Origin: Piscicola geometra
Taxonomy: Eukaryota; Annelida; Clitellata; Hirudinida; Piscicolidae
DNA: 64,000 nucleotides
Direction of reading: 5' to 3'
Assembly: GCA_943735955.1 (NCBI GenBank)
Contig: OX030968.1
Location: forward strand, 4,322,434-4,386,433
Every line of letters starts with the position of its first letter. The first letter of the stretch is position 1. The notes beneath the pieces are model-generated. The model saw only the letters and a program-made list of their open reading frames with translations, searched no databases and had not been told where the DNA came from. Position numbers and translations under genes: made by a program. Shown here in pieces: positions 4,661-60,648 of this stretch.

Positions 4661-4708
4661 TCAATCAATATCAATAACTCGACGAAAAAAGAAACTCTCA
4701 ACTCTGAC

Positions 4709-8295: not shown

Positions 8296-8480
8296 AATGT
8301 ACTCTTTGCATCAATCCACACCCCACCCGCCCAAACCCACTCATAAGAGACCTACTAAACGCAATACTCAATAATAACTTCTTCCAATTTCAAAATACTA
8401 GCTACCAACAAGCTAACGGCTGTGTCATGGGCCTCAGCACCACCCAGCCCTCGCAAACATTTACCTACAAACCTTAGACA
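8296..8480 (+). pseudogene. PLE reverse transcriptase motif B fragment
   Basis: Translation gives LLNAILNNNFFQFQNTSYQQ followed by NGCVMGLST. It corresponds to the PLE region before and at motif B (Q..GLAMG..MAP). The downstream YIDD box is not recognisable. Related copies lie at 12,230-12,420 and 54,520-54,700, always followed by the same block of unknown coding-like sequence. Confidence 0.5.
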
Positions 8481-12229: not shown

Positions 12230-12425
12230 ACGTACTCTTTCCATCAATCCACACCCCAACCGCTGAGACCCACTCATAATAGACCTACTAAATTCAAAAC
12301 TCAATAATAACTTCTTCCAATTTTCAAATACTAGCTACCAACAAACTAACAGCTGTGCCATGGGCATCAGCACCACCCAGCACTCGCAAACATCTACCTA
12401 CCAACCTTAGACAATAATATAATTA
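12230..12425 (+). pseudogene. PLE reverse transcriptase motif B fragment
   Basis: Reads LNNNFFQF, then SYQQTNSCAMGISTT, the PLE motif B neighbourhood with the conserved Gly replaced by Ser. After it the sequence repeats the block seen at 8,500 and then, from 12,565, the DDLARQFLLYIRT-like sequence that also precedes the PLE N-terminal fragments at about 3,065 and 6,960. Stops occur throughout. Confidence 0.45.
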
Positions 12426-23990: not shown

Positions 23991-23999
23991 TGAATGGAT

Positions 24000-24360
24000 A
24001 AATGAATGGATGGATGGATGGATGGATGGATGGATGGATGGATCAACGGCATCTTAATTGTAACTAATGCGGTGTTGATGTTATCTTGATTCTGAAGTAG
24101 ACGTGTCATTAATATTTTGATGATGATGATAATGATGATGATGACGATGATGATGATAACTGGTGGTGTTGATGATGATGGTGGTGCGGATGATGATAAT
24201 GATGGCGGTGGTGATGAAGGTGAGTTTGATGTTCACTTTTACTATATGTTTTTAAGCCCAATTCATAAATAAATAAAAGAAGTAAAAATAAAATAATTAG
24301 AAATAAAAGAAGTAAAAATAAAATAATTAGAAATAAAAGAAGTATAAATAAAAGAAATAC
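24000..24360 (+). repeat. (GGAT)n, GAT triplet repeats and a 30-bp AT-rich repeat
   Basis: GGAT tetramers from 24,006 to 24,041, GAT triplets at 24,116-24,220, then two to three copies of a 30-bp unit starting AAATAAAAGAAGTAAAAAT at 24,268-24,355. Confidence 0.85.
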
Positions 24361-27788: not shown

Positions 27789-28228
27789 GGAGGAAAATGA
27801 TGAGGATGTTGACGAAGATGATGAAGAGAAAGATGATGATGATGATGAAGAGAAAGATGAGGATGATGATGAAGAGAAAGATGAATAGAAAGATGATGAT
27901 GACGATGACGATGATGATGAAGACGATGATGATGAAGAGGATTATGAGGATGATGATGAGGAGGAGGAAAATGATGATGAAGAGAAAGATAATGATGATG
28001 ATGAAGAGAACGATGACGATGATGATGAAGAGAAAGATGATGATAATGATGACGAAGATGATGAAGAGAAAGATGATGATGATGATGAAGAGAAAGATGA
28101 TGCTGATGATGAAGAGAAAGATGATGATGATGAGGAGGAGAAAAATGAAGAGAAAGATGATGAGGATGATGACGAAGATGATGAAGAGAAAGATGATGAT
28201 GATGATGAAGAGGAAGATGATGATGATG

Positions 28229-28280
<52 letters not shown>

Positions 28281-28685
28281 GGAGGAAAATGATGAGGATG
28301 ATGACGAAGATGATGAAGAGAAAGATGATGATGATGATGAAGAGAAAGATGAAGAGAAAGATGATGATGACGATGACGATGATGATGAAGACGATGATGA
28401 TGAAGAGGATGATGAGGATGATGATGAGGAGGAAGAAAATGATGATGAAGAGAAAGATGATGATGATGATGAAGAGAACGATGACGATGATGATGAAGAG
28501 AAAGATGATGATAATGATGACGAAGATGATGAAGAGAAAGATGATGATGATGATGAAGAGAAAGATGATGATGATGATGAAGAGAAAGATGATGATGATG
28601 AGGAGGAGAAAAATGATGAGGATGATGACGAAGATGATGAAGAGGAAGATGATGAAGAGAAAGATGATGATGATGATGATGAAAT
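27640..28685 (+). repeat. GAT/GAAGAGAAAGAT array with about 500-bp internal duplication
   Basis: Over 1 kb of GAT, GAA, GAG and AAA triplets. The order of variants near 27,655-28,140 repeats near 28,157-28,660. The Asp/Glu/Lys frame is broken by a TAG at about 27,888, and the open Met/Lys/Arg and Ile/Phe frames have no domain. I therefore call this a repeat, not a gene. Confidence 0.9.
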
Positions 28686-29149
28686 AATCGTAGAAGTCTT
28701 CGAATGATGTTGTGCGAGGTCTGAGGCGTTGTTGCGAAGGCTGCATCAAGGGCTTTTGTTCAGAAGAATTCTTTGTACAAGACTGTGCATTAGGATTTTT
28801 TTATGTATACAAGTAAGTATGCAAACAAACAAGCGAGCACACTCGCAGCCAGACAAACGTAACTATGTAAAATAAGCATACAAACATACTAACAAAGATA
28901 TATAAATACAAACGAAGAAACAGAAATACAAATAAACATGCAAACACACGTACAGGTGCTTTTTATTGTTGTTGTGTTTGAGAAGTTGTTGTTGCTGATG
29001 TTGTTGTTGTTGTATTTCGTTGTGTTGTTCAGCAGTTTGGAGGAGATAGTCTCTACAAGCTGCGCTGCCCTGCCAGGCTCTTGCGTCAGTTCTCTTGTGT
29101 TCTTGTTGCCTCTCTTTCCCAAAAAACCAATTATATCATTCCATCATTC

Positions 29150-29640
29150 CATCCTCATCTTCATCTTCATCTTCATCTTCATCTTCTAATTTCTCAAAAT
29201 CGTTATCAACCTTTCGTCATTATTGGCATAATCTTTTTCATCCTCATCATCTTTATCATTATCATCAGCATCATCATCATCAGCATCACCATCATCAGCA
29301 TCATCATCACCAGCATCAACATCAACATCTTTATCGTCATGCTAACGGTCGACGTTTGGATTTTAAATTGGGGATGTGTGCCTAATGTGCATTGTAGATG
29401 ATGACTCACACACATCAATGTCCTCTCCCAACTATTACTAACTCTCCCTATTTTCTCTTTTTCTACTTCTATTCCTCATCCTCTTCTTCATCTTTTCTTC
29501 TTCTTCCTCTTCTTCTCCTCTTCTTTTTCTTCTTCTTCTTCTCCTCCTTCTTCTACATCTTCTTCTTATTCATCATCTTTTTCCCCTTTTCTCGTTTTTT
29601 TTCTTTCTCTTCATCCTTCTCTTTTTCTTTCAACAGTTAG
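29150..29640 (+). repeat. ATC- and TTC-based simple repeats
   Basis: ATCTTC repeats at 29,153-29,190, CATCAT/CAGCATCA repeats at 29,240-29,330 and TTCTTC/TCCTCT tracts at 29,455-29,640. Frames through them are low complexity. Confidence 0.9.
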
Positions 29641-29716
29641 AGACCCTTAATCAAACAATTAGAGCAATCTTGAAAACTCGGAGGGATCTTTGCGTCTTCA
29701 GGTTCGCCTCCAAGGG

Positions 29717-29935
29717 GAACGGACAAAAAGCCTCTCGGAGAAAAAGCCTTCGGATAAAATACCTTCTACAAAAAGCCTCCCGGAAAAAAAACCTCCTGGA
29801 GAAAAAGTCTCTCGGAAAAAAAGTCTCCTTGTTAATATTTTAGTATAAATAAAACGGACTTTTAATAGAAAAAACGGATTTTTTTATAGATTCGTTTCAC
29901 AATTTTAAATAAATTACATAATTAAAACGAACTTT
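29717..29935 (+). repeat. 15/16-bp-periodic module, plus copy 2, with 75-bp repeat tail
   Basis: Same variant order as at 25,225-25,345 with a few substitutions (for example GGAAAAAAAGTCTCC), followed by one full and partial 75-bp unit. It sits about 75 bp after the TTC array. Confidence 0.85.
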
Positions 29936-29939
29936 AATT

Positions 29940-30155
29940 TATCAAATACACGACAAATTATTAAATACAATATGAATTATTAAATACAATATAAATAATT
30001 AAATACAATACAAATTATTAAATACAATATAAATTATTAAATACAATATAAATTATTAAAAACAATATAAATTATTAAATACAATTATTGAATACAATAT
30101 AAATTATTAAATACAAAATAAATTATTGAATACAAAATAAATTATTAGATACAAA
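29940..30155 (+). repeat. AATTATTAAATACAATATA tandem repeat
   Basis: About ten imperfect copies of a 19-20-bp AT-rich unit. A single related stretch (ATTAAATACAATACGAATTA) lies after the 25,350 repeat at about 25,620. Confidence 0.9.
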
Positions 30156-30426
30156 ATTGGAACAAATAGAAAGAAGGGATCCACTCACAAGAAGAATAGG
30201 AACCAATAACAAAAGTTTCAAACGTTTTAAAAACAAATACAACAAAAATGGGTCGCTGATATGGTGGCGCGTGCATGACCACGTGATGAAAATGATGAAG
30301 ATAGTTATGCACACTGTCATTTCTATGTAAATCATCGTTGATAGTGATGATGAAGATGATGTTGTTTTGTCTTAGGTTGATTATAGGTTTCTGTTGATTA
30401 TGTAAGTTTATAGTAGAAATAATAGT

Positions 30427-30907
<481 letters not shown>

Positions 30908-30972
30908 AATTAAAATTTCACCAAAAGATCTAAAGGAATCAGCTTTTAAATAATAAATCCATTTATTAAAAT

Positions 30973-31440
30973 TAGAGCTGTTCCGAGAGGGAAAATTTTC
31001 ATCGCCGTTAATCGTTCGATTAAAAGCGTTAATCATATTTTAACGCAATTTTTTAGAATACTTGACATTAGTATGAAAAAGTTTTTTAATTTTTTTTCAA
31101 AAAATTAATAGAGATGTTATCAGAATTTATTTATAAAAGTAATCCACATTTGAAAAAAAATCCATAAATGATAAAAAATACAATTTTCACACATCCTTTT
31201 TGAACCAGTTACCTAAGCGAAAACGTTTTGTTACATTAGTTGGATCTAAAAATACTCTTTTCTTGCTAACTATGTGTCTTAACAAGAAGAATAGACATGC
31301 ACAAGGAACTGTCTTTCCAGGAGATGACAAGTACTTTTTTGCCAGTTTCGCAAGAGCCGTATTTGCTACTTCGTGTTACTGCCACCAAACAAGAGAGCAA
31401 CTCTCAAAGCCTAATTCAGATTTTGTTCTACAAGGTTAAA
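30973..31440 (-). mobile_element. hAT fragment (family B), 3' end with terminus
   Basis: On the minus strand this matches the right part of the hAT fragment at 40,840-41,432: the C-terminal dimerisation stretch (SSP/ APC-like, broken), the AACTGG..ACACAT region and the terminus with CGATTAACGGCG. The end reads TAGAGCTGTTCCGA, against TAGAGATGTACCCCGA in the other copy. All frames are broken. Confidence 0.7.
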
Positions 31441-31554
31441 TTATTGACTTAGTAATCATTGAGGTATCTTCATCTTCAGATTCTGAAATTAAATATGTTC
31501 ATAGCATTGGCGGCGATCCTAGGGAGGTCTTGGGGTCAGGACTTTTTGGTAGTG

Positions 31555-31665
31555 AGAAATGTTTTTATAAGTGGGTTGGAGGGGGGTCTGAACCCCAGAC
31601 CCTCCATGCTGGGTAAGACTCTCCAAAGTTTGCAGCAGATCGCTGCCCCTGCTGGAAACACACAA
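31555..31665 (+). repeat. Short dispersed repeat (copy at 38,205-38,310)
   Basis: Both copies share CCATGCTGG, then AAG or GGATT, CTCCAAAGTTTGCAGCAGAT-like sequence and CGCTG(C/T)CCCTGC. No coding capacity. It lies in the 5' region of one Ly6/uPAR-like copy and in intron 2 of another. Confidence 0.55.
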
Positions 31666-31740
31666 GTCATTCATTAATTTTTACTTATTCAATGGTTTTT
31701 CGATTGATATTATATACAAATACATACCAAAACATGCACA

Positions 31741-32073
31741 TATATGAGATCACTTGCAGTACAAAAGGGCGCCTGAAATCCGTTGGTCATTTTCTTGATT
31801 TGCAGTTATCAAGTCTCTTCGTCACGGTTTGTTGTTTTCATTCAAATTTTTTATAATTTTTTGATTGGAAAAACAAGAAGAAAAAGTTGTTTCTTCATTT
31901 ATATAATTAAATAAACTATTTTAACTTTGGCTTTTCAAGAATTATTTATTTATGTTTCTCAAAACTCACACACAAAACCAAACTTCATAACCCATTTCAA
32001 ACTATTTAACCAATCTCAACCCACTTCTACTCACTCTACTTACTGTTCACAACTCCACAACTTCCATCCACAG
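31741..32073 (+). promoter_or_regulatory. 5' flank of Ly6/uPAR-like copy A, conserved with copies B and C
   Basis: The block starting GTACAAAAGGGCGCCTGAAA and running to CCATCCACAG just before the ATG is conserved in reverse at 39,440-39,128 and 42,590-42,283. A TATATAAT-like box lies at about 31,900 (TATATAG at about 39,280 in copy B). Conservation from about 330 bp upstream to the start codon suggests that the promoter and 5' UTR duplicated with the gene. Confidence 0.55.
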
Positions 32074-32245
32074 ATGAACTCATCAAGAACCCTTATGAGC
32101 ACAGGCTTGGCGCTGCTAGCCATGTTCTGTGCTGCAGACGCCTTGACGTGTTATCATTATTTGAGATGTGATTGGACAGAAATCTCCACTACAATATGGG
32201 CAGTAAATCAAAATTCTTGCATAACTTATATTGATAAAAGAGAAG
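32074..32245 (+). pseudogene. Ly6/uPAR-like exon 1, copy A (orphan exon)
   Basis: Encodes a signal peptide MNSSRTLMSTGLALLAMFCA followed by ADALTCYHYLRCDW and a later NQNSC, the start of a three-finger LU domain. The exon ends GAAG|GTAAGT in phase 1, the same phase as in the intact copy B. Beyond the donor come a TAA/TCA microsatellite, a LINE fragment and a hAT element; I find no matching exon 2 or 3 on this strand. It is probably a dead partial duplicate, unless exons lie in sequence I failed to recognise. Confidence 0.7.
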
Positions 32246-32337
32246 GTAAGTAGTTTTCGTTTGTTGTTTGTAGCGTTTTTTAATTATTATTAAAATTAGA
32301 TTTAAACAGTTCTTTTGGAGTTTCATCATCCTCATCA

Positions 32338-32545
<208 letters not shown>

Positions 32546-32634
32546 CCTCATCACCACCACCACCATCATCATAATCCTCATCAGCATCATTAACATCTTC
32601 ATTTTTATAAACATGTAATTTCGCCACTCATACT

Positions 32635-33330
32635 ATTGTTCCATCTAATCATATTCGTAGCTTAGCATTTATTTTCGACTCGAAATTAACCTTATCAAAC
32701 CAAATTCTATCAGTCACTAAATCTTGCTATTTTCATCTCAGACGTATCAGACAATTATTACCTTACTTAGATGACCCTTCTTTAAAGATGTTAGTCTCTG
32801 CACTTGTTTTATCTCGAATTGACTATTTTAACTCAATCTATTATAGTTTACCTGAATCTACTTTAAAACAATTAAATAAAGTATTTAATTATGCAGCTAG
32901 AGTCGTTAGCCGTACTCCTATTTATCACCACATTACACCCTCTCTCATTTTATTACATTGGCTCCCCATCAAATTTAGGATTATATTTAAAATCTGTGTT
33001 TTTATGTTTAAATTAAAAACTCCCCAGTATCCCCAATATACCTCAAATCATTAATTACTCACCCTCATAGAAATAATTTAAGATCATCCACTCAAAATCC
33101 TTATTTCATCCCTTCCATTAATAACTCTTTTGCTAAACGTTCTTTCCATTATGCAGGTCCATATATTTGGAACTCATTACCCCCTCATTTAACTACTTCT
33201 AAATCATTATTTACTTTTCGTAAGGATCTGAAGACATATCTGTTTAACAAATTCGTTTACGAGCGCTCTTGAATTTGAAGAAAAAGCGCTATAGAAATCT
33301 ATTTGATTGATTGATTGATTGATAAGCTAA
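32635..33330 (+). mobile_element. CR1/L2-like LINE 3' fragment
   Basis: Translation gives LVSALVLSRIDYFNSIYYSL, NKVFNYAARVVSRT, HWLPIKFRIIFKICVFMFKL and, after frame changes, the closing FRKDLKTYLFNKFV. These are the C-terminal blocks of CR1/L2/Rex-like ORF2. The 3' end carries GCGCTATAGAAATCTATT and a TTGA/TGAT microsatellite tail (33,300-33,325), the usual 3' terminus. It is 5' truncated. It lies in what would be intron 1 of Ly6/uPAR copy A. A shorter relic of the same region is at 51,745-51,890. Confidence 0.88.
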
Positions 33331-33424
33331 GTAATAACTCAAGGCAATGAAGTTAAGAAGTCGCAAACATTGTTCTTTCATGAATATAAAAGTATTTGAT
33401 AACAAAAGTTGAGCAACTTACTAC

Positions 33425-36400
33425 CAGTGTTATTTTCGTAACGAAAACGAAAATGACAATTCTGAATAATCGTTCCACGAAAACGAAAATAAAAACTAAA
33501 TTTATTTTCAAAACGAAAACGAAAATAAAAACTATAATTATTTCCAAAAACGATACTGAAATAAAAACTATAATTATTTCCAAAACGAAAATTAAATAAA
33601 TTTTTATGATATGCCATAATATACAAATGAAAATTTATATAAAAAATATATGTCTATGTTATAAACATTATCTTTGGGCTTTATGAAAGTAACGCCATTT
33701 GAAAACGTTATTTTATTACTGCTTCGCTTTTTCAACTAAATTATCACTTATTTTAATCGTAAATTTGTTATTATACTTCAAATTTGTAATTAATCAATAA
33801 TTTACGTAATCAATTCTTATAATATTTCAAATTTAAATAACAATGAGTTTATCACGTTCATTTGCTGGTAGAAAGAAAGAAAGCGAAACTTGGAAATATT
33901 TTACATATTCTTCAGAAAACGACAAAAGTACATGCATCGTTGAAGTATCGTCGACCAAAGACGGACAGAAAGTATTATGCAACGCAACACTTAAAGGAAA
34001 AAATCCGTCAAACCTCAAGGTTCATCTCTCTATCTACCACAAAAAGTTTTTTCAAGAATTCGAGGAAATTGAATTAGTCAGAAAGAGGAATTGTGAAAAG
34101 ATTAAAAGTAATGAAAATTCCGTTCAACAAACTATTAGTTTTGAAAAAAAACGACGAAAACAGTTTTGTATTCAAGTAAGTGCGAAGAATATTTGAAGGG
34201 ACAAGACTCCTTATTAAAATTATTTGTAAACGCAAACATCCCATTAAATCTAGTATCTAATGAACATTTTAAAAACTTTGTGGAAACATTGGATATAAAA
34301 TTTGAAATGCCGAGTAATTTTGTTTATTTTATTTTATTCAAAGTGTAAAAAGTATTATCATATATTGTAGAAATTTATTTGAGCAATTACAATGGTCGTT
34401 ATTCATTATAAATGATTACAACATATTGTATAAAAATAGTGGAGATCAATTATTGAAATTTTTTTTCAGGCCCATCAAAGTTACTGGACTTATTAAAAGA
34501 CAAATATGATGAGGGTTGCAAAATTCTGAAAGACTCATTGAAGAATGTTCGAAGAATAGTTATATGTTTAGATATTTGGACCAAAAAAGGTTTAACATCA
34601 TCATATGTTGGGATTGCAGCATGCTGTTTCAATCCACAGAGTAGCAAACCGTGTCATTACTTTTTAAACCTACTTCAACTGAATCATCCCCACACTGGAG
34701 AAAAACTTGCTGAGTGTTTATCAAAGTGTCTCACTGATTGGAATATAAAACCAAATAAAAAAAATTTAATCATATCTGATTACGGTTCAAATATTTTAAA
34801 AGCTGTGCGTATTCTTCAAAAGAAGCATGCAGAAAAAGACGATTATTCAGAAAATGAAAACTCAGATAGTGATGAAGAAGAAAGTGAAACATTTTGTGAT
34901 GAAATAGAATTAGAAAAATGGGTTCCTCATCGACATATGCCATGTTTAGCACACACCATACAACTAGTTTTAAAAAGATTATACTCCAATAATGTATTTG
35001 AACCAATAATTACAAAAGCAAGGTATATAGTCAGCAAAATTAGAAAGTCAACAATACTCATAGAAAAACTCCTTGAAAAATCTTCCAAAACAGTAATAAC
35101 AGACGGCCCCACTAGATGGAACAGCACTTTTTTTATGGTCGAAAGATTACTAGAACTAAAAGATGATGTCAATTATGTTATGGATTTTGCCAAAATCGAC
35201 ACATTATTAGCAAGTGAATGGAACAGATTGGTAGAAGTTCAACATTTTTTGAAACCATTCGCAATCCACACTGACAGTAATCAGACCGATACATTGTCTT
35301 TATCACATGTCATACCGTCTGTTGTAGACCTAGACTGCCATTTGGAACTAATTAAATTTGTAGGAATTTCTAGTTTGATTGTTTCATTGAGGAGTGCAAT
35401 TCAACATTATTTTGAGTGCTTTTTAAATCCCTTTTCATTGAAATTCAATCCAGTAACAGCAGCTGCTACATTTGTGGATCCAACTGTTGCAGAATTCATT
35501 CTGTTACCACAATATTCTAGTTTATTGCATGCTGCTAAAACTTACATTTGTTCACAGGTAATTTAGATATATTTTAAAAACAAGTTTTCAATTAAATTAT
35601 AAATCTTATTTAATGATACATCACATCAAATTTTTATTGCAATTAAACAATTTGAATCTTTTATTTTGCAGGCTTTTAGCGAAGCAAAGAACAATTGTTT
35701 TGAAAATAGTTCACAACATAATGAAATAGAAGCTTCGAATGAATCATCAATTCTTTCAAAGAAATTTAAATTTTAATCTTCTAAATTAAGTATTGACGAT
35801 ACAAGTTCTGGCAAAGAATGCAAATCAAGTATAATTGTGGAAATAGAAAAATATATTTCGGAGATGAAAATAAATTCTTCAAAAATCAAAAATACTTGTG
35901 AACCAAATGGGTTAAAATTCTGGAATGACAACATAGCTTTCTACCCTATTCTTAGTTCAATTGCACAAGATCTTTTGGCAGCTCCAGCCTCCCAGACATA
36001 CGTTGAGAGAATTTTTCTTTATGTGCTTCTTTAACAAGTGGGAAAAGAAATAGATTACAGAAAAACCTACAAATGAAAGTTTTCTTGAGACTGAATACAT
36101 TTTTATTTGACTTAATTTTGTAAACTCATTTGTTGTTAATAAACTGTTCTATTTTACTGTTTCATTTTATGATCAATTAATTTTTTTTGATACAAATAAA
36201 TAGTGTTTGAAGTTTCAAATTAATATAATTTCAAAACTAAAATAAATAATAAAAACTATAATTATTTTCAAAACGGAAACGAAAATAAAAACTTTAATTA
36301 TTTTCAAAACGAAAACGAAAATAAAAACTAAATTTGTTTTCAAAACAAAAACGAAAATAAAAACTATAATTAATTCCAAAACGAAACTGAAATAAAAACT

Positions 36401-51744: not shown

Positions 51745-51890
51745 TTAGAATCAGTTATCAAATTTAGGATCATATTTAAAATTTATCTTTATGTTTAAAT
51801 TAGAAAACTCAGTATCTCCAGTATACCAAGTCATTAATCTCTCACCCTTATAGGAGTAATTTAAAGATCATCCACACAAAAGTATTATTT
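51745..51890 (+). pseudogene. LINE C-terminal relic
   Basis: TTAGGATCATATTTAAAAT and later CTCCAGTATACCA match the 32,970-33,090 segment of the CR1/L2-like fragment (FRIIFKI). It is truncated on both sides. Confidence 0.6.
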
Positions 51891-51954
51891 CATTCAATAA
51901 TGAAGATAGCTTACGCAATAAATTTGACAAAAATTTCTCAAGTATACCCTCTTT

Positions 51955-52090
51955 TCTCTGCATCAACCATGTTAATCAAGATATGAAGAGATGGCTCAGA
52001 AACCACGGAGCAGGTTCCTCCGAAGAGTTGAATTTGTATAAGGTTAATGTAGAAATTTTATTGGAGCAGAATTTCTACCAAAAAAATGTT
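51955..52090 (+). pseudogene. Unknown repeated ORF, copy 3
   Basis: Reads DMKRWLRNHGAGSSEELNLY then KVNVEILLEQNFYQK, the same protein as 1-159 and 11,566-11,700 with amino acid substitutions. Substitutions preserve the frame. Confidence 0.4.
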
Positions 52091-52119
52091 AACTTTTATA
52101 TTCCATTCAAATACTTCAT

Positions 52120-52557
52120 TTTGGTGTCACAAATATCTTAAATATCTGGTAGATAAATCAAAATGTCATAAAACAATTATTAGGTTGTTTAAATTCCCTT
52201 CAATCAACACTTGCCAGCCTATATAAGGCGATTCATCCTGTGTAGGAACAACCCTGATGAAGCTTAACACTAAGCGAAACTAGTTGGTTCAATGAGGAGA
52301 TTATAAAACAACTTGGTGACCGTAAATTTTATAAATTAACAAGCGAATACGAATACAACACCACTAAAAGACTAATAATTAATGAATTGAATAAACACCG
52401 ATTAGATAAAAAATTGAAGGACTTTCTCTACAACGAAAACAATAAAACACAATTTAGGAACTTTTACACGTTACCGAAAATACATAAGGAAATTGAGAAA
52501 TGGACTAATGGTATCATCCCACCAGGTAGACCTATAATAAGTAATAGGATGATGACA
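52120..52557 (+). mobile_element. Penelope-like element 5' region with start of its ORF
   Basis: A non-coding leader (its first 90 bp recurs at 58,070-58,170) contains TATATAAG at 52,220-52,227 and a hammerhead-like motif at 52,244-52,293. An open frame follows: GDRKFYKL, a helical stretch, RNFYTLPKIHKEIEKWTNGI and PPGRPIISN, which is the PLE reverse transcriptase fingers (LPKIHK, GRPIIS). The frame then leaves PLE sequence and ends at 52,558, so the palm is missing. It is a different sequence from the 55,267 ORF but closely related. Confidence 0.75.
52244..52293 (+). ncRNA. Hammerhead-ribozyme-like motif, PLE 5' region
   Basis: CTGATGA at 52,254-52,260, a 4-bp stem GCTT/AAGC with loop AACACT, and GAAA at 52,276-52,279 give the conserved core. 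The stem I strands AACC (52,250-52,253) and GGTT (52,286-52,289) pair. Stem III would be the two-base CU/AG palindrome CTAG with no loop, followed by GTT as cleavage triplet. An extra A next to stem II and the minimal stem III are weaknesses. Hammerheads with very short stem III that act as dimers are known from PLEs. Confidence 0.55.
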
Positions 52558-52865
52558 TGAATCATCTAACAGAAATTTACCGCTACCAGGAAAGGGAGAC
52601 ACGTCTTTTGGTCCATGATATAATAGTCACCTCAAAAAGGCTCTCTCCTTACCAACTCTCGCATTTCAGACAGCCTTATCCTGGGCCAGGTCACGCATAC
52701 CATGTTGATGGTGGAAGTCTTTATCAAGCAACATGCTCCTATGTTAGAATCACTGCGATCTCCTCGGATGCAAGTTACGGGATGCAAGATTCCACGCGGA
52801 TAGATTGGTGGTTCAACGGAACCACAGGAGTAGGGTGGAACGGGTTTTTGTATATTCATTTATAA

Positions 52866-53600
52866 ATGTCCCGGAATTATAGATTTTTTTCTCTCAGACA
52901 CAGCTTTAAAGGTGAACAAGCAGCGTTCAGGGCCTATCTGACAGCAAACAAAGTCGCTCCAGAGATCTTTCTACGCTACGTCGGCAACCGCCTGCACCTC
53001 CTTTTCCACATGGCAGGCGTCGCCCTCCAGCACAGAGAATTGTTACATGGATTCCTTATCAAGTATTTTGTAAGATTCTTTGTTTAATAATTACATAAAA
53101 TTACTTGACTTTTTTAAAACCAACTGTAATTTTTTCGTATCAGCAGTTACACCAAGAATGATGTGAGCAAGGCCCTGTGGGAGGGACTCAAGGAACCAAG
53201 GACAATGGTGCAACTGCAGGCCCTTGGTTTGGATGGGAAAATCCTCACAGGGCCTTGGATGACCCTAGCTTATAGGAACTATCACAACCTCTCCAATCTC
53301 GAGATGGTAAGGATTGGAATACTTTTTCTATCATATTTTTTTTCTTTTATTGAATCAATCCGTTAATTCCATAATAGAGGCACCAGCATTCCAGCACGCT
53401 GTAAAGAAGATTGCGGAAATTCAAAAGCATCCAGAAAGTATTACCACAATGAAAAAAGACGTATTTGGACAGCCTCTGAAAAACGATGCAGTTCACAAAG
53501 CTCTAATATCTTATAATAACAATTTAAATTTATTGCCTCACATAGTAAGCTCTCTAATGGGAGGAGCAGGATGGAACGACAAATGGAGAGATACATTGTA
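52866..53600 (+). pseudogene. YVGNRLHLLFHMAG module, copy 3 (longest)
   Basis: The first block has FRAYLTANKVAPEIFLRYVG then NRLHLLFHMAGVALQHREL. The second block, after an intron-like gap ending CAG at about 53,144, has DVSKALWEGLKEPRTM, LTGPWMTLAYRNYHNLSNLE and, after another gap, APAFQHAVKKIAEIQKHPES then KKDVFGQPLKNDAVHKALIS. It closes with SLMGGAGWNDKWRDTL and a stop at 53,599. Possible introns end in TATCAGCAG and start at GGTAAGGATT. This copy could be read as a spliced gene, but the first exon and start are unclear. Confidence 0.45.
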
Positions 53601-53639
53601 GGAGACCTGTCCTGCCCCTCTGCTGAGATGTTAATGGAC

Positions 53640-53900
53640 ACCCGCTGTAGCTTATGACAAAGAAGCTCAAAGCTATGTAATCCGGAAAAAAAATTTGCTT
53701 CATACCCATCCACATGGAAGTGAAGAATTTTCAATTTATAGCTCAGAAAGACGACCAAAAAGATTATTAGAGAAACAGACACTATTGATGCTATCTAACG
53801 GCGCGAATCCCACACTAATAGCAGATCATTTACAAAGCCAGAGTCTCCAAACGAAACCACAAGATTTTTATAATCACATGGACAACAACTAATCAGATAA
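53640..53900 (+). pseudogene. MULE-type N-terminal domain relic
   Basis: Reads AYDKEAQSYVIRKKNLLHTH then PHGSEEFSIYSSERRPKRLL, with the second His of the HNH pair kept and NANPTLIADHLQSQSLQTKP following. One of the cleaner copies, but it lacks the start and the catalytic domain. Confidence 0.5.
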
Positions 53901-53969
53901 ATCTGCTGAGAAGATTTTCTGACGTAAGAATGGTTGATGAGATCTACAATTTTAGGAGAAGTTATGATT

Positions 53970-54345
53970 ATTTACAATAGATATATAGACGCAACCCACT
54001 AACAAGAATAAACACATTCAACCCACAGAGGCTAAGAACATATAGTCCGAGACTAAAAAACCTATAACCTAAGAAAATATGAAGTGGGTCTGGCAGAAGA
54101 AAATGGGCTACTAGGACAGAATTCAATTCCCAGTATAAAGTTTGGGTGCAAAACCGTAACGGTGGTGGAAAGAGTGGTGAGAATAACTTCAAGTACATTT
54201 GGACCAGCGGCGGACCATCTGGGGCTGAAAGATATGTGGCGGGCTTATTGGTCCGAAAAAGGTATCAAGTCAACGGTCGGTAATTATAAAGACAATAGGT
54301 TTAATGGCTTGTTTAAAACTGCCTTCTCAGCAGCGCCAAAAAGAT
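53970..54345 (+). repeat. Repeated coding-like block, copy 2
   Basis: Matches 8,500-8,880 and 54,730-55,100. The 103-codon frame from 54,084 reads MGLAEENGLLGQNSIPSIKF and ends VGNYKDNRFNGLFKTA. Function unknown. Confidence 0.4.
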
Positions 54346-54425
54346 GCTTTTATAGGAATGATGATGCTGTATTAGGAATGATGATGCTGTATTAGGAATG
54401 ATGATGCTGTATTAGGAATGATGGT
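54346..54425 (+). repeat. 20-bp tandem repeat
   Basis: Three to four copies of AGGAATGATGATGCTGTATT. Two more copies with variants are at 55,145-55,195, in the matching position after the next block. Confidence 0.9.
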
Positions 54426-54509
54426 GATGATTAAGATGAAGATTTTCTGACGTAATAATGGTTGATGAGACCTACAATGTTAGGAGAAGTTATGCTAAGA
54501 TTTTGTATT

Positions 54510-54705
54510 AAAAAAAAGCCACAATTAAGCGTACTCTTTCCATCAATCCCCACCCCAACCGCCCAGACCCACTCATAATAGACCTACTAAACTCAATACT
54601 CAATATTAACTTCTTCCAATTTTCAAATACTAGCTACCAACAAGCTAACAGCTGTGCCATGGGCATCAGCACCACCCAGCACTCGCTAAAACTTTTACCT
54701 ACAAA
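54510..54705 (+). pseudogene. PLE reverse transcriptase motif B fragment
   Basis: Reads LLNSILNINFFQFSNTSYQQ then ANSCAMGISTTQHS, as at 8,296 and 12,230. It is followed by the repeated coding-like block, copy 3 (54,730-55,100). The shared order shows a single composite repeat that has been copied at least four times. Confidence 0.45.
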
Positions 54706-54729
54706 CCATAGACAATCATATAATTAATA

Positions 54730-55100
54730 AATACAAACCCTAATTTACAAAAGATATATAGACGCAACCCACTAACAAGAATAAAACCATTCAACCCACA
54801 GAGGCTAAGAACATACAGTCCGAGACTAAAAAACCTATAACCTAAGAAAACAGAAAGTGGGTCTGGCAGAAGGAAATGGGCCACTAGGACAGAATTCAAT
54901 TTCCAGTATAAAGTTTGGGTGCAAAACCGTAACGGTGGTAGAAAGAGTGGTAAGAATAACTTCAAGTACATTTGGACCAGCGGAAGACCATCTGGGTCTG
55001 AAAGATATGTGGCGGGCTTGTTGTTCCGAAAAAGGTATCAAGTCAAAGGTCGGTAACTATTAAGACAATATGTTTAATGGCTTGTTCAAAACTGCATTCT
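54730..55100 (+). repeat. Repeated coding-like block, copy 3
   Basis: Near-identical to 53,970-54,345, including GQNSISSIKFGCKTVTVVER and the VGN(Y) ending. The frame is open for 68 codons from 54,857 and closes at a TAA where the other copies read on (NYKDN). Confidence 0.4.
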
Positions 55101-55266
55101 CACCCTCTAAAGCAGCGCCAAAAAGATCCAGAAAGATGCCTTTATAGGAATGATGATGCTGTATTAGGAATGATGGTGATGATTAAGATGATGTATTGGT
55201 AATGATGCTGTGACGATGAGGATGATGATGCTGTGTCTTAACTAATTTATTGTAAGTTGCCTTTGA

Positions 55267-57135
55267 TTGATTGATTGTGATATTCATCAACCTATAACTG
55301 TCTTTGTTATTCAAAATCACAACGACTATCACAAGGAAGCGTTAAGACAACTAGCAGATCAATCTTTTTACAAAATCTCGAACCCTAACGAATACAAAAA
55401 AACAAGTAAACTAATCAAAGACACCCTTAACAAATATAATATAAATAACACCCTTAAACAATTCCTACTAAATAACAAATCCCCATTTAAACTAAGAAGA
55501 TTTTACCTCCTACCTAAGATACATAAAGACAAATCTAAATGGAACGGTCTTATTCCACCTGGCAGACCCATCATAACTAACACCAGAACAGAAACAACTA
55601 ACATAACTAAATACATCAACCACTTCCTAGTACCATTAATGAAAAAACACCCAAGTTACCTGAAAGACGGCTTTGAACTTATTGACATCATTGACAACCT
55701 TAACATCAATAACAAAATAAATAACGAAAACAACGACCTCATCCTAGCTACAGCAGATGTAACTTCACTATACACAAACATGTTGAATAATAAAACTATC
55801 GCGAAAACCATTAAAATCTTCAAAAAATACCCAGAAGTAAACAGACCTGACCAATTAATAATAGATCTACTAAAAATAACACTAAATAATAATTTTTTTA
55901 TATACGAAGATAAAACATACAAACAAATAAATGGCTTAGCAATGGGCATATCCATGGCACCCGCCCTCGCTAACATCTACCTGAATGACATAGACAATAT
56001 TATCCTCAACACTAAACCCATCCTCTATAAAATATATATCGATGACCTACTGATCATCTGTACAAAAGACACACTTAACATCGATAACAAAATCAATAAT
56101 GAAAACAATGACCTCATCCTTGCCACAGCGGATGTAACGTCTCTATACACCAATATGCTGAACAACAAAACTATCGCCAAAACCATCAAAATTCTCAAAA
56201 AACACCCAGAAATAAACAGACCTGACCAACTAATAATAGAACTCCTTAAAATAACACTTAATAATAATTTCTTCATATACGATGATAAAACATATAAACA
56301 AATAAATAGATTAGCAATGGGCATTTCCATGGCACCCGCCCTCGCGAATATCTACCTTAACGATATAGATAATATCATCCTGAAAACGAAACCCATCCTC
56401 TACAAAAGGTACATAGACGACCTACTGATCATCTGTACGAAAAACACACTCGAGGAAATAAAAAGCAAAACAACTAATGTACTAAAAGAAATTAAATTAG
56501 AATACACCCAAGATAATACTAACATTAACTTCTTAGACTTAACGATAACCCTTCATAACAATAAACTAACAACCAAAACATATATTAAAGACACTAACAA
56601 CTTCAACTGGTTACACTCAACATCCAACCATCCCAAACATATCATCACCAACCTGCACAAATCCGGCTTGATAAGATTCGCCAGACACTGCACATCCTTA
56701 GAAGATTACCAAGCGATAACTAAAAGATTTTGCAGAGCCCTAGCAAACAAAGGGCATAATTTCACTAAGATGAAAATAAATAGTAAACTAGTTTGGAGGA
56801 AGATTAAACACGAGAAGGATTTAATAAATAATAATAACATAATTCCTGAGAAAAATAATAATGATGATGATAATAATACTAATAATAATAATAAAGATAT
56901 TAATGACAATAACAAGAGTAATAACAACAACAATAACATCAACGATGATAACAACAACGAAACACGAATGTACAATCTCCCAATCATCATAGACTATGAC
57001 AAAAATAACAATCACCTACTAGTAAAAATAACTAAACTAATCCATAATCATAACAGTAAAACTAAATCACGAATAAATATAAGACCTATCAAGGCATTCT
57101 ATACCAATAGAACCTTGATAAGGCAACTATCTTAG
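55267..57135 (+). CDS. Penelope-like element reverse transcriptase with a doubled palm segment
   Basis: A 622-codon open frame. Residues 75-100 hold LRRFYLLPKIHK and GRPIITN (fingers). Residues 145-269 hold motif A (ATADVTSLYTNM), motif B (GLAMGISMAPALANIYL) and motif C (YKIYIDDLLII). Residues 270-394 repeat the whole set in frame (125 codons, 375 bp: 55,699-56,073 and 56,074-56,448). The thumb follows once (NFLDLTITLHNN, NFNWLHSTSNHPKHI, RFARHCTS). An Asn/Asp-rich low-complexity stretch occupies about 525-570. No GIY-YIG endonuclease domain is seen, although many PLEs have one C-terminal to the RT. The start is uncertain because upstream is unrelated repeat DNA. Confidence 0.85.
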   Translation: MIDCDIHQPITVFVIQNHNDYHKEALRQLADQSFYKISNPNEYKKTSKLIKDTLNKYNINNTLKQFLLNNKSPFKLRRFYLLPKIHKDKSKWNGLIPPGRPIITNTRTETTNITKYINHFLVPLMKKHPSYLKDGFELIDIIDNLNINNKINNENNDLILATADVTSLYTNMLNNKTIAKTIKIFKKYPEVNRPDQLIIDLLKITLNNNFFIYEDKTYKQINGLAMGISMAPALANIYLNDIDNIILNTKPILYKIYIDDLLIICTKDTLNIDNKINNENNDLILATADVTSLYTNMLNNKTIAKTIKILKKHPEINRPDQLIIELLKITLNNNFFIYDDKTYKQINRLAMGISMAPALANIYLNDIDNIILKTKPILYKRYIDDLLIICTKNTLEEIKSKTTNVLKEIKLEYTQDNTNINFLDLTITLHNNKLTTKTYIKDTNNFNWLHSTSNHPKHIITNLHKSGLIRFARHCTSLEDYQAITKRFCRALANKGHNFTKMKINSKLVWRKIKHEKDLINNNNIIPEKNNNDDDNNTNNNNKDINDNNKSNNNNNNINDDNNNETRMYNLPIIIDYDKNNNHLLVKITKLIHNHNSKTKSRINIRPIKAFYTNRTLIRQLS

Positions 57136-57260
57136 GTAATCCTCGCTGAGTCCCAAGGCCTTCATCCACACGAGCTGGATCGCATGATGTCCTCGGACAT
57201 ACCTTTCACAAACCCTAACCCTAACCACCCACCCACCCTTCCCACCCACCCACAAAATAC

Positions 57261-57554
57261 TTGTCAACACCAAAAACTCCTCGATCAACAACTTTAACTT
57301 CAAGTGAGAATCGACGTCAATTTGAAAACTGTAAATTATTATCAATGTTCGAAAACATTGAAAAAGAAGAAAATATTGAAGAAGCTGATGTTCATCAGAT
57401 TATGGATAAAATGAAAAAGGAACCTTTCGCAGAAACTCCTTTACTTCAAACTTATTTTTATTATATTTTTACTAATTGGCTTAGCAGCAGCCCCTGGTCG
57501 GTAGAGAACATATCGGTATATGTTGAATATTCATTAAATAAATTATTATTTTAA
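57261..57554 (+). pseudogene. MULE C-terminal fragment ORF
   Basis: A 97-codon frame begins STPKTPRSTTLTSSENRRQF, unknown, and continues into FAETPLLQTYFYYIFTNWLS then SSPWSVENISVYVEY. The last part matches the sequence before TNNDLEGWH at 9,970-10,080 and 59,220-59,340. The motif itself is lost because the frame diverges after VEN. Partial. Confidence 0.45.
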
Positions 57555-57600
57555 ACATTAAAGTTTAAAGCTAGCCATTATTTCAAATACGATTGTTTAA

Positions 57601-57642
57601 AATTCCCTGAAGAAGCTGCAGCCACAGCGAAACGTCGGAAAG
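57601..57642 (+). ncRNA. Hammerhead-ribozyme-like motif downstream of the PLE ORF
   Basis: CTGAAGA at 57,607-57,613, stem II GCTG/CAGC (57,615-57,618 and 57,625-57,628), GAAA at 57,629-57,632, then CGTC with GTC as cleavage triplet ending at 57,636. Stem I strands TTCC (57,603-57,606) and GGAA (57,637-57,640) pair perfectly. As in the 52,254 motif, one A is unpaired beside stem II and stem III is minimal. The position, 465 bp after the PLE stop, fits the PLE terminal repeat, where hammerheads are known. Confidence 0.6.
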
Positions 57643-57649
57643 ATTCAGA

Positions 57650-58260
57650 ATTATTGAGGAAAGAAGACTACAACGGAACCATCCACCTTATACTTTATTA
57701 AAATAATTTCATCATATAAACCAGAAGAATGCTACATACGTACACAATCCTCACATTCAGACCGAGCTGGAACACAAGCACTGCACACACAAACAACTCT
57801 GACCTGGGCACATACCAGTACCACCAACAACAGCAAGCCTACAACATCCAAGAGATGGGTAGAAAGAAAAGGTATGAAACGCAGTGAGGGTTCAGATGAT
57901 AACTTTTTATGTTATGGCGAGTTAGTGAAATAGCAATAGCAAGAAGTGAAAGATTATAGGGTTAACAGAGACAAATTGTTTGAGATGTTAGAGAATGGGA
58001 GTTTTGAGAGTATCCAATTACACTGAGCAGAATTTCTACCAAGATTTTTTAAACTTTTATATTCCATTTAAACACTCAATTTTAGCGTCACAAATATCTT
58101 AAATATCTGGTAGATAAATCAAAATGTCATGAAACAATTAGTAGGTTGTGTTCAAATTCCCTTCAGTCAGTTTATCGTAATCACAATAGGGGTCAGTGTG
58201 TATTTGCAAAATGTGTATGAAAATCAAACACTGAAGAAATTGTTTATTTAACAGAAATAA
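57650..58260. other. Non-coding stretch with part of a PLE leader
   Basis: At 58,070-58,170 the sequence TATCTTAAATATCTGGTAG and neighbours match 52,110-52,210, the region just before the PLE TATA-like box; the match stops before the hammerhead. No other feature is recognised. Confidence 0.5.
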
Positions 58261-58309
58261 ACTATTGTGTTCAGTTTTTTCGAGTTTTGCGGTTTTTATT
58301 CAGTTAACA

Positions 58310-58850
58310 AAAATGTCTCAATGTATTAGCTGTAGGAAAGTGGTTTCCAGCAAGGCGATCGCCGTTAGTTGGAACGGATGTAATGGCTGACAACACTTGA
58401 GTTGTGGCCACACAGGTATCAAAAAACAATTATATGAAAAGTTGAAGGCAGTTGAAGGGAAAGCTCAACTTCAGTATCATAAGTTATGAGAAAGAAGACG
58501 TGTCTGGTTCATCTCACACGGAAGAGAACAGGCCTATTCCCGGGCCATCTCTTGTGTTGGAAGCAAGATTTGTTGATGAGGAGAGCAGGTCTATTACAGG
58601 TGTCTCATCTGATTCCTCATCGTGAGGTTAGTGACACAGGTCGAGAGCATTAGGACAGACATGGGAGTCCTGATGAAAATGGTCAACTCCATAATGAAGG
58701 GGCAAAAACAAGAGAAGGATGGTCCTCTCTTGCCTGAGAGAGTAAAATTCCCAATTAGAACTATGTTCTCATTGTGTGAACTCATTGGAAGATGCAACAC
58801 TTTCGAAACTTGGTATCTTAATGGAGCTTTTAAAATCAAATTAAGTTAAC
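58310..58850 (+). pseudogene. Cys-rich module plus DUF4806-like module, copy 3
   Basis: MSQCISCRKVVSSKAIAVSW then NGCNG, a stop, QHLSCGHTG and ITK(K)QLYEKLKAVEGKAQL. From 58,620 the coiled-coil and LPERVKFPIRTMFSLCELI follow, then TFETWYLNGAFKIK, a decayed MULE TWYLDGTFK box in which the catalytic Asp is Asn. The order Cys-rich, DUF4806-like, MULE catalytic start is the best evidence that these modules belong to one gene. Confidence 0.55.
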
Positions 58851-58869
58851 TTTAGTCCATATATTTATT

Positions 58870-59600
58870 AATATTCTATTTGTTGTCTATGCTACATTAT
58901 CTATGTTTATGTTTACGAGTCTTATTTAAATGTATCCCACAGGTTTTAGAAAAAATGAATTCCTTGCTGACCCAGAGAAGAGTACACACTTTTGCATTAG
59001 ACTTTGAAGCTGGGCTCTGGGTTGCTTTGCGACAAGTCTTTCCTCTGGCCGTATTTAAGGGTTGTGTCTTTCATTTTTGTCAGGCTTTGTTGAGGAAGAC
59101 CCAAAAGACTAGCCTCACATCTGACTATCTTGAAAAGGATGAAACTTATTCTCTTTTGCGGAAAACTTCTGCTCTTTCTTTACTTCCTGCCGATCAAATT
59201 CTCTCCTCTTTTTAAGAACTTCGCTAAAAAGCAGAAACTCTTTACTTCAAGTTTATTTTTCTTATATTTTTACTAATTAGCTTAGCGGCAGCCTCTGGTC
59301 GGTAGAGAAAATATCGGTATATCGCCGACATGTTTGTACCAATAATGGCCTTGAAGGCTGGCATTAATCGAAAAGCCGGAAAATCTAACCTACCTTTTTA
59401 TTTGTTAATTTCTTTATTATGTCAGGAGCTCTATTAGTCCCTGAAAACTGCACTTTTAAAAGGCAACGTAAACTCTCTCGTATCCAGAGGCAGAAAACTT
59501 TCTGTTGAAGGTTTGCTTTGGGAGGCTTGGGATTGGTATGAGACAGAGAACATATCCGCTAGCCAGCTTCTCAATTACTGTTCTGGAATTTATGGACCTT
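58870..59600 (+). pseudogene. MULE transposase catalytic domain, second half
   Basis: The 111-codon frame to 59,215 contains FALDFEAGLWVALRQVFPLA, then GCVFHFCQALLRKTQ. The first stretch carries the second catalytic Asp (DFE..) and the second is the CxFH(F)xQA motif of MULEs. After a stop, frame-broken FAETLYFK-like sequence leads to VENIS, and the EGWH region at about 59,330-59,365. Lesions make it inactive. It follows a copy of the catalytic start at 58,796. Confidence 0.8.
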
Positions 59601-59611
59601 TCACACTTTAG

Positions 59612-59800
59612 TTTCTACTAAGAAAGAATGAACGAAACATAAACAAAAGAATACTCAAAAAGGTAGAAACTAAGGAAGAATGGACGAAACAAAAACAAAA
59701 AGATACTCAAAAAGGAATATCCATTTGTTTTTATTTCGCCCATTCCTCCTTAGTTTCTACCTTTTTTGAATATCTTTTTGTTTTTGTTTCGTCAATTCGG
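59612..59800. repeat. Foldback sequence, copy 2
   Basis: Repeats of GGTAGAAACTAAGGAAGAAT then GGACGAAACAAAAACAAA on the left oppose TTTTTATTTCGCCCATTC and TTTGTTTCGTCAATTC on the right. Same arrangement as at 10,375-10,552, and the same neighbours. Confidence 0.6.
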
Positions 59801-59929
59801 GTATGACATTTATTTGTATTTTATATTCGATCACATCTCCAATGGTTTCTCTGACTCTGCGTTAGAATGGTTCAGGGACTGCTAGCTACCAACAAACTAA
59901 CGGGGCATAAGCACCACCCAGCATTTTTG

Positions 59930-60300
59930 TCGAGTGAATTGTCATCCAGTTCGTATCGACCCAAGAGAAAAAACTTCAAGCTTCACTTATGTTAATAATT
60001 ATGAATTAAAATGAATATTAATAAGCCTGGTTATGCAAGATGTCCATATTTGTAGCTTATGACAAAGATGCTCAAAGCTAGGTAATCCGGAAAATAAGTT
60101 TGCTTCATAACCATTCACACGAGAGTGAAGAGTTTTCAACTTATAGCTCAGAAAGACGACCAAAGAGATTGTTAGAGAAACAGACACTATTGATGCTATC
60201 TAACGGCGCGAATCCCACACTAATAGATGATCATTTAAAAAGCCAGGGTCTTCAAACGAAACCACAAGATTTGAAGAATCTAAAAAAATTAATTTAAAGG
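59930..60300 (+). pseudogene. MULE-type N-terminal domain relic
   Basis: The copy reads HNHSHESEEFSTYSSERRPK and LSNGANPTLIDDHLKSQGLQ; a stop replaces the Tyr of the SYVIRK strand. It shares the 3' extension (LKKLI) with the 1,780 copy. Confidence 0.5.
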
Positions 60301-60648
60301 TGAATAATCGATTAGTCATTATATTTAAAAAAAATCATTTTGGTAGTTATCCTCAAAATATATTTTTTAAAATCTTATTTTTCGTGTTTAAGGTTCTTCA
60401 ATAGATGAAATAAAAAAGGTTTTCGATGCCCCTGGCATTATTTATCATATAGATGCAAACCCGGAAACCAAATGGAATGCATCACATGGACAACAACCGA
60501 TCAGATAAATCTGCTGAGAAAATTTTTGGACGTAATAATGGCTGATGGGACTTACAAGGTTAAAAAAAGTAATGTTCTCATTGTGTAGACTGGAAGTTTT
60601 CAAAACTTGGTATCTTGATGGAACTTTTAAAATCAAATTAAGTTAACT

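What the first reader, a model, noticed from the sequence alone, without database searches (positions are those of the whole stretch)
55699..56448. PLE reverse transcriptase with its palm (motifs A, B and C) duplicated in tandem and in frame
The 622-codon ORF contains the segment from before motif A to just after the YIDD box twice, 375 bp each, with no loss of frame. The copies differ by many scattered substitutions, some of them synonymous, so a simple assembly stutter is unlikely. Copy 1 keeps the Gly of motif B (NGLAMG) but has KIYIDD; copy 2 keeps KRYIDD but has NRLAMG. Each copy has thus lost a different conserved residue, as if two half-good catalytic units coexist. It may be a dead recombinant, or a two-palm polymerase. 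I know of no described PLE with this layout.
Basis: partly seen in the sequence, partly recalled or inferred. Interest (0 to 1): 0.78.

Follow-up and report, generated by a model that had tools for sequence, protein, structure and literature searches.

The report
Decaying retrotransposon with doubled catalytic segment
In a fish leech genome, a broken copy of a retrotransposon whose relatives sit in telomeric repeats carries the catalytic core of its reverse transcriptase twice in one reading frame; it looks like a fossil copying accident spread by chromosome duplication rather than a working two-core enzyme.

Summary
The repeat is real: 55699-56073 and 56074-56448 are 375-bp in-frame copies of the RT palm (motifs A-C), 325/375 identical, 38 synonymous and 10 non-synonymous codon differences. 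The host is almost certainly the fish leech Piscicola geometra. Close relatives are Penelope-like elements without GIY-YIG, in arrays within CCCTAA repeats.
The two-palm form was found at five places, all on one scaffold. They share flanks, so this looks like one insertion spread by segmental duplication. It lacks the first ~244 residues of its relatives' RT frame and has no ATG before residue 125. ORF changes among the five copies fit neutrality (19 non-synonymous: 8 synonymous). The "two half-good units" are local decay: the motif-B arginine is private to this copy, and the other four have intact motifs B and C in copy 2.
Between the palms Ks is 0.82 and omega 0.047, so both were constrained before the insertion. 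I favour a join between two related elements by template switching. In-situ duplication in a once-working two-palm element is not rejected (AU p 0.12-0.36).

The parts
53970..55193 (+). Upstream repeated unit (300-bp copies at 53970 and 54743, plus 20-bp-period minisatellites); contains a degenerate PLE palm fragment at 54548-54670
55267..57135 (+). 622-codon open frame, 5'-truncated PLE RT; opens with TTG after a stop; first ATG at 55639
55300..55698 (+). Finger part of RT (homologous to relatives from residue 245 of their stop-to-stop RT frame); truncation point near 55300
55699..56073 (+). Palm copy 1 (motif A ADVTSLYTN, motif B NGLAMG, motif C KIYIDD). Motif B is NDLAMG in the 4 sister loci, motif C is KRYIDD in 3 of those 4
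56066..56076 (+). Copy 1/copy 2 junction, ...GACACACTTAACATC...; about 3 nt (ACT) shared by the two presumed parental sequences
   Evidence: sequence; found at 5 places only; microhomology read by eye with the C2 element as proxy
56074..56448 (+). Palm copy 2 (motif B NRLAMG here, NGLAMG in the 4 sister loci; motif C KRYIDD in all 5)
55933..55935 (+). Copy-1 motif-B codon: GGC (Gly) only at this locus, GAC (Asp) in the other 4
56308..56310 (+). Copy-2 motif-B codon: AGA (Arg) only at this locus, GGA (Gly) in the other 4
56449..57135 (+). C-terminal part (post-palm/thumb region, Asn-rich linker about 56820-56965, conserved tail about 56977-57132, stop TAG)
57136..57226 (+). 3' UTR resembling that of the C2 and C35 elements (read by eye), ending in CACAAACCCTAACCCTAACC: remnant of the telomeric target

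Best explanation
This is a fossil insertion of a GIY-YIG-lacking Penelope-like element of a fish leech, of the kind that sits in telomeric repeats there. The element was reverse transcribed from its normal 3' end at CCCTAA DNA (inferred from the native-looking 3' UTR and the CCCTAA remnant). Near the start of the palm the nascent cDNA was joined, at about 3 nt of microhomology, to the palm end of a second template of a related lineage about 13% different. Copying resumed and ended early, 5'-truncated. The join kept frame by chance (a 1-in-3 event) and gave fingers-palm-palm-thumb. The locus was then spread by segmental duplication to five places on one chromosome and is decaying, apparently without selection. 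Shown: the duplication, shared flanks, 5' truncation, 3' end, neutral pattern among copies, and past constraint on both palm sequences. Inferred: that the palms came from two templates, and that a template jump (or internal priming at an exposed end) made the join.
For: One insertion, not a mobile two-palm family: the junction 36-mer (up to 3 mismatches, whole genome) occurs at 5 places, all on C14 (same 5 by similarity), with collinear flanks: L010 with window 51813-59501, 99.0%; L011 with 53970-60570, 97.6%; L012/L013 with 52846-56945 in pieces. Broken: lacks the first ~244 residues of the relatives' RT frame, no ATG before residue 125, and the only ORF1 match in the window is a fragment 50 kb away; frameshift in palm 1 of L011; 15-bp deletion in palm 1 and loss of homology after 56945 in L012/L013. 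Neutral since duplication: 19 non-synonymous, 8 synonymous, neutral expectation 73-80% non-synonymous, p 0.15-0.43. Parents functional: Ks 0.82, Ka 0.038, omega 0.047 between palms; the three one-palm pairs with Ks between 0.1 and 2 give omega 0.062, 0.092 and 0.098; both branches constrained (22 syn:4 nonsyn and 11:3). Two lineages: palm 2 groups with the one-palm C2/C35 elements (96/94), and this topology has the best likelihood in each of five model runs. Setting: CCCTAA arrays, including an element truncated inside its palm next to 7 CCCTAA repeats; partial tandems are described for PLEs (PMC3846280, passages) and in vitro initiation internal to the RNA for a canonical PLE (PMC11167929, abstract, passages and main-text part 1 of 2).
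Against: The tree does not reject in-situ duplication (AU p 0.12-0.36). If copy 1 and the fingers came from one template they should be equally far from the C2 element; instead the synonymous-codon difference is 0.39 for fingers, 0.39 for palm 2, 0.39 for the C part and 0.50 for palm 1 (palm 1 against the rest p 0.047 post hoc, against fingers p 0.11), so only palm 1 looks odd. No surviving one-palm element closer to palm 1 was listed (the list is of the best-scored candidates). The ORF is less diverged than flanks in one pair (window-L011: 12/1865 against 83/4239) though more in another (window-L010: 18/1869 against 27/5816), so gene conversion or some constraint is possible. Many relatives lie far from scaffold ends (e.g. 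C6 near 2.45-2.48 Mb), so the telomeric setting of the original event is not certain.
Confidence: 0.62

Rival explanations
1. In-situ tandem duplication of the palm in an ancestral PLE, after which a two-palm RT stayed functional and mobile for long enough to reach Ks 0.8 between its palms with both under purifying selection; the C14 loci are the fossil remains of that lineage.
For: Not rejected by AU (p 0.12-0.36); palm 1/palm 2 omega 0.047 with both branches constrained; fingers, palm 2 and C part are equally far from the C2 element; needs one lost lineage rather than two.
Against: A single insertion found in 171 Mb, against many one-palm loci; best tree joins palm 2 with one-palm elements; no relaxation of either palm, as redundancy would predict; of 87 database relatives 86 have a palm match and none has two (the search scored only the 7996 candidates sharing most words). 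A doubled A-C segment in a single RT is a priori unlikely to work (inference).
Confidence: 0.15
2. Foreign palm inserted into one element: fingers, palm 2 and C part come from one template and only palm 1 (375 bp) from another, by a double template switch or ectopic gene conversion after an in-situ duplication.
For: Only palm 1 deviates in synonymous distance to the C2 element (0.50 against 0.39 for the other three); palm 2 groups with the C2/C35 elements.
Against: The deviation is weak and post hoc (p 0.047); needs two switches; the order of palm1-like and palm2-like sites shows no clustering (43 sites, runs test p 0.79), so no conversion tract inside the palm is visible.
Confidence: 0.17
3. 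Assembly artefact (stutter or collapsed repeats) rather than genomic sequence.
For: The region is repeat-rich and segmentally duplicated; no reads could be inspected.
Against: Five loci (four distinct ORF sequences) with private substitutions and indels share the junction; copies differ by 13%, mostly at third codon positions; HiFi assembly with reported QV 51.3 (passages).
Confidence: 0.03

Closest known systems
Endonuclease-deficient, telomere-associated PLEs (Athena of bdelloid rotifers and relatives)
   Same: PLE-type RT without a GIY-YIG domain; elements in arrays within telomeric repeats, 3' end away from the scaffold end at the C2 and C5 left ends; a 5'-truncated element with telomeric repeats at its truncated end (compare PMC3846280, passages).
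   Different: Host is a leech with CCCTAA repeats; clade membership with Athena was not tested by a tree; many relatives and the window copy itself lie far from scaffold ends; the window copy carries two palms.
Canonical Penelope/Poseidon-type PLEs with GIY-YIG
   Same: RT homology (87 database relatives, 25-42% identical over part of the query; several carry PF01541); partial-tandem copies and initiation internal to the RNA described (PMC3846280 passages; PMC11167929 abstract, passages, main-text part 1); Asn-rich stretches in the ORF also described for Adineta Penelope (PMC3846280, passages).
   Different: No GIY-YIG in the C2 element (control P0004 scored); no hammerhead or other Rfam match in 8 loci at E up to 1.
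Chimeric or tandem retroelement copies made by template switching (recalled class of event, e.g. LINE chimeras)
   Same: Direct join of two partial copies with 2-3 nt microhomology, 5' truncation.
   Different: Here the join stays in frame and doubles the catalytic core; the template switch itself is inferred.

Membership tests
Penelope-like element (PLE) | RT domain related to PLE RTs | tested here: met
   RVT_1 E 6.6e-16; 87 relatives, several with GIY-YIG. No tree against TERT or other RTs was built.
Endonuclease-deficient telomeric PLE | No GIY-YIG endonuclease after the RT | tested here: met
   C2 element RT frame: RVT_1 only at E up to 0.01; positive control P0004 scores PF01541. Window ORF: no GIY-YIG at E up to 1.
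Endonuclease-deficient telomeric PLE | Copies embedded in telomeric repeats at chromosome ends | tested here: inconclusive
   Met for the close relatives on C2 and C35 (CCCTAA between units or at their 3' ends). Not met by many others, which lie far from scaffold ends (e.g. C6 near 2.45-2.48 Mb, C8, C10, C17). The window copy keeps only CCCTAACCCTAACC at its 3' end and lies internally. C2's first 60 bases are not CCCTAA.
Endonuclease-deficient telomeric PLE | Priming from exposed chromosome 3' ends | not testable with these tools
   Needs biochemistry; orientation at C2 and C5 left ends is consistent (matches listed there are all on +).
Athena clade proper | Phylogenetic placement with Athena RTs | not tested
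   No Athena sequences were aligned.
PLE | Hammerhead ribozyme in the terminal repeats | tested here: not met
   No Rfam match at E up to 1 in L009, L014, L015, L016, L018, L019, L021, L040; this feature is reported for canonical PLEs (hammerhead in the legend of PMC11167929) and may be absent in this subclass.
Functional two-palm polymerase | Intact start and full-length ORF | tested here: not met
   5'-truncated, first ATG at residue 125.
Functional two-palm polymerase | Selection maintained on the two-palm ORF among its copies | tested here: not met
   19 non-synonymous: 8 synonymous, not below neutral expectation.
Functional two-palm polymerase | Independent insertions of the two-palm form | tested here: not met
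   5 copies with shared flanks, one scaffold.
Functional two-palm polymerase | Predicted fold holding two palms | tested here: inconclusive
   AlphaFold2 mean pLDDT 43, pTM 0.31; the one-palm rows aligned to copy 1 only.

The most novel reading that the evidence does not exclude
A lineage of Penelope-like elements once encoded a working reverse transcriptase with two palm cores in one chain, both under strong purifying selection (omega about 0.05 and 0.07 on the two branches, my uncorrected arithmetic from the counts) for a synonymous distance of about 0.8, and the five C14 loci are its last, decaying remains.
Probability: 0.13. Interest if true: 0.85.

Novelty: new member of a known kind. Interest (0 to 1): 0.33.

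Why it matters
As a fossil it records how an endonuclease-free PLE copy can end up with its catalytic core doubled in frame, and it adds a leech with CCCTAA arrays of such elements as a system for studying them. If the palms proved to be strict sisters, it would mean that a polymerase with a doubled active site persisted under selection, which would be very surprising. My searches found no two-palm PLE in print: (terms for a duplicated palm and for two RT domains: 0 and 1 papers, the one unrelated by title; template switching, partial tandem: 5 and 2 papers, listings only apart from PMC3846280), in the held open-access library only.

Tried and rejected
Assembly stutter: judged unlikely because five loci with private differences share the junction. 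Mobile two-palm family: rejected by shared flanks. 'Two half-good palms': rejected by sister copies. Whether the palms are sisters: constrained trees and AU tests left it open; others (error; time limit) gave no test. One search's partitioned alignment held one outgroup row (L026) out of register by one codon; this was seen and the test was redone without that row. In-situ stayed unrejected both times; the third topology (palm 1 with the C2/C35 elements) was rejected (AU p 0.008) but not (p 0.12-0.17) or (p 0.085). A codon-model test was attempted and never completed. Relative-rate count 16 against 27, p 0.13, and runs test p 0.79: no support for a mosaic inside the palm. Structure model: uninformative. 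Hammerhead or other RNA: none. A phage-collection search of the 750 bp found nothing.

The C2:28951-31587 stretch first looked like a second two-palm frame of 1081 aa; reading it showed two separate frames with a stop, a 3' UTR and 7 CCCTAA repeats between them.

Full report
Observation. The 622-codon frame at 55267-57135 holds the palm twice: 55699-56073 and 56074-56448, 325 of 375 bases identical, no indels, 41 of 50 differences at third codon positions, 38 synonymous and 10 non-synonymous codons. Each copy alone matches RVT_1. The repeat edges are abrupt.

Setting. The window is G000:C14:4322434-4386433 of a 171,024,195-base genome in 66 contigs. Its mitochondrial COX1 is 97% identical to Codonobdella sp., a leech. 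The published Piscicola geometra assembly is 171.1 Mb in 69 scaffolds with a 15.1-kb mitochondrion and scaffold N50 9,301,023 bp (PMC11134150, passages); contig C7 here is 9,301,023 bases and C66, which holds COX1, is 15,135. The published longest scaffold (16,636,273) differs slightly from C1 (16,619,467), so the held version may not be identical.

The family. The close relatives on C35 and C2 carry an Asn-rich ORF (745 residues stop to stop on C35, 30% Asn, no Pfam match at E up to 0.01) and an RT frame of 763-792 residues without GIY-YIG. On C35 four listed units recur with period 5849, and on C2 five units of a related family with period 5074, with CCCTAA repeats next to the elements. Matches listed for C2 and C5 all lie within 66 kb of the left end on the + strand. 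C1 begins with CCCTAA repeats; C2's first 60 bases do not, but CCCTAA tracts occur within its first 6 kb. This fits the published description of endonuclease-deficient PLEs that prime at chromosome ends and receive telomeric repeats at a truncated 5' end (PMC3846280, passages). One C2 element is truncated inside its palm and directly preceded by 7 CCCTAA repeats. Against a purely telomeric habit, many relatives lie far from scaffold ends (for example C6 near 2.45-2.48 Mb).

The two-palm copies. Protein, DNA and junction searches find the two-palm form at five places, all between 4.37 and 4.82 Mb of C14. Of the 40 stretches that I fetched (L009-L048), 38 have a palm match of at least 61 residues and 5, these five, have two abutting palms. 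Not every place was fetched, and the genome search scores only its best candidates, so remote copies could be missed; the junction search itself covered the whole genome at up to 3 mismatches. The five share flanking DNA: L010 is collinear with window 51813-59501 (99.0%), L011 with 53970-60570 (97.6%), L012 and L013 with 52846-56945 in pieces, and L012 with L013 at 99.7%. So this is best read as one insertion multiplied by segmental duplication. The 3' end looks native: a 3' UTR like that of the C2 element and then CACAAACCCTAACCCTAACC (read by eye). The 5' end is truncated at residue 245 of the relatives' stop-to-stop RT frame (first Met 87), and the first ATG is residue 125.

Decay. Copy 2's NRLAMG exists only in the window; the other four have NGLAMG and KRYIDD. 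Copy 1's Gly exists only in the window (Asp in four); KIYIDD occurs in the window and L011. L011 has a frameshift in copy 1, L012 and L013 a 15-bp deletion in copy 1. Changes among the five copies in 55267-56940 are 19 non-synonymous and 8 synonymous, where neutrality predicts 73-80% non-synonymous (p 0.15-0.43). This differs from the contrast between the palms (11: 39 changes; Fisher p 6e-5). Divergence of ORF and flanks is inconsistent: window-L010 18/1869 in the ORF against 27/5816 in flanks, window-L011 12/1865 against 83/4239, so conversion among copies is likely and weak constraint is not excluded.

Origin of the two palms. Between palms Ks is 0.82 and omega 0.047. In one search the three one-palm pairs with Ks between 0.1 and 2 give omega 0.062 (L016b-L018, Ks 1.19), 0.092 (L016a-L032, Ks 0.49) and 0.098 (L016a-L036, Ks 0.54); L016b-L024a gives 0.037 at Ks 2.28; palm 2 of L012 against the C2 element gives 0.033 at Ks 1.15. 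Rows with L026 are invalid because of a register error, most other pairs are saturated and give no omega, and near-identical pairs were left out. With the C2 element as outgroup, palm 1 carries 22 synonymous and 4 non-synonymous changes and palm 2 carries 11 and 3; 8 sites are unassigned. So both were constrained, either as two separate one-palm elements or inside a working two-palm element. Trees place palm 2 with the one-palm C2/C35 elements (96/94), and that topology has the best likelihood in all five runs. The in-situ topology is not rejected: AU p 0.174, 0.361 (with one row out of register), and 0.151, 0.124, 0.339 without that row. Synonymous-codon difference to the C2 element is 42/109 for fingers, 56/113 for palm 1, 43/111 for palm 2, 43/111 for the C part. 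Thus only palm 1 looks foreign, weakly, and the simplest two-template model, in which the fingers travel with palm 1, is not specifically supported.

Mechanism proposed. I favour a join during reverse transcription: the cDNA, begun at the native 3' end on telomeric DNA, left one template near the start of its palm and continued at the palm end of a related template, with about 3 nt in common at the junction (read by eye). PLEs are described as forming partial tandems (PMC3846280, passages) and initiating internally on their RNA in vitro (PMC11167929, abstract, passages and main-text part 1; an endonuclease-bearing PLE). The jump itself, and that two templates were used, are inference. The in-frame outcome needs only 1-in-3 luck. 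The strongest argument against a long-lived two-palm enzyme is absence: one truncated insertion found in the genome, no relative with two palms among 87 database proteins (86 with a palm match), and no sign of relaxed constraint on either palm.

Structure. An AlphaFold2 run gave mean pLDDT 43 and says nothing either way; the one-palm rows of its alignment fell on copy 1.

Verdict. The object is most likely a decaying, recombinant, 5'-truncated copy of an endonuclease-less PLE. The origin of the doubled palm stays open between recombination of two lineages (favoured) and an in-situ duplication in a once-functional two-palm RT (minority reading, and the interesting one).

The telomeric-habit row of the membership test was moved from met to inconclusive because of the internal relatives; repeat count, truncation residue, omega comparison and the count of stretches were mended and re-reading.

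Noticed in passing
L014 (C35:9000-16000), L018 and L019 (C2:7500-12500, 28000-34000): Arrays of near-identical PLEs (period 5849 x4 on C35, 5074 x5 on C2) with CCCTAA repeats next to the elements; on C35 an Asn-rich 745-residue ORF1 and an RT frame: a leech with telomeric-repeat-associated endonuclease-less PLE arrays.
   Followed up: partly
L019:2380-2640 (about C2:30.4-30.6 kb): A PLE truncated inside its palm and directly preceded by 7 CCCTAA repeats, just downstream of another element's RT frame and 3' UTR.
   Followed up: partly
window 8316-8438, 12249-12371, 54548-54670: The same degenerate palm fragment of a PLE inside a locally repeated unit, three times in the window.
   Followed up: no
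window 52288-52539 and 4661-4864: Fragments of an RT finger part and of ORF1 of the same superfamily.
   Followed up: no
window 15306-16310 (-) and 34457-35566 (+): Open frames of 334 and 369 aa that look like hAT/ZBED-type transposase derivatives; the label is recalled, no family search was made.
   Followed up: no
C14, 4.37-4.95 Mb: A cluster of segmental duplications with old PLE copies, including others at 74-77% identity, far from the scaffold ends: possibly a former chromosome end or fusion site (the last is a guess).
   Followed up: no
window 22001-24000: Strongly strand-biased stretch, GC 0.56 and GC skew 0.86.
   Followed up: no
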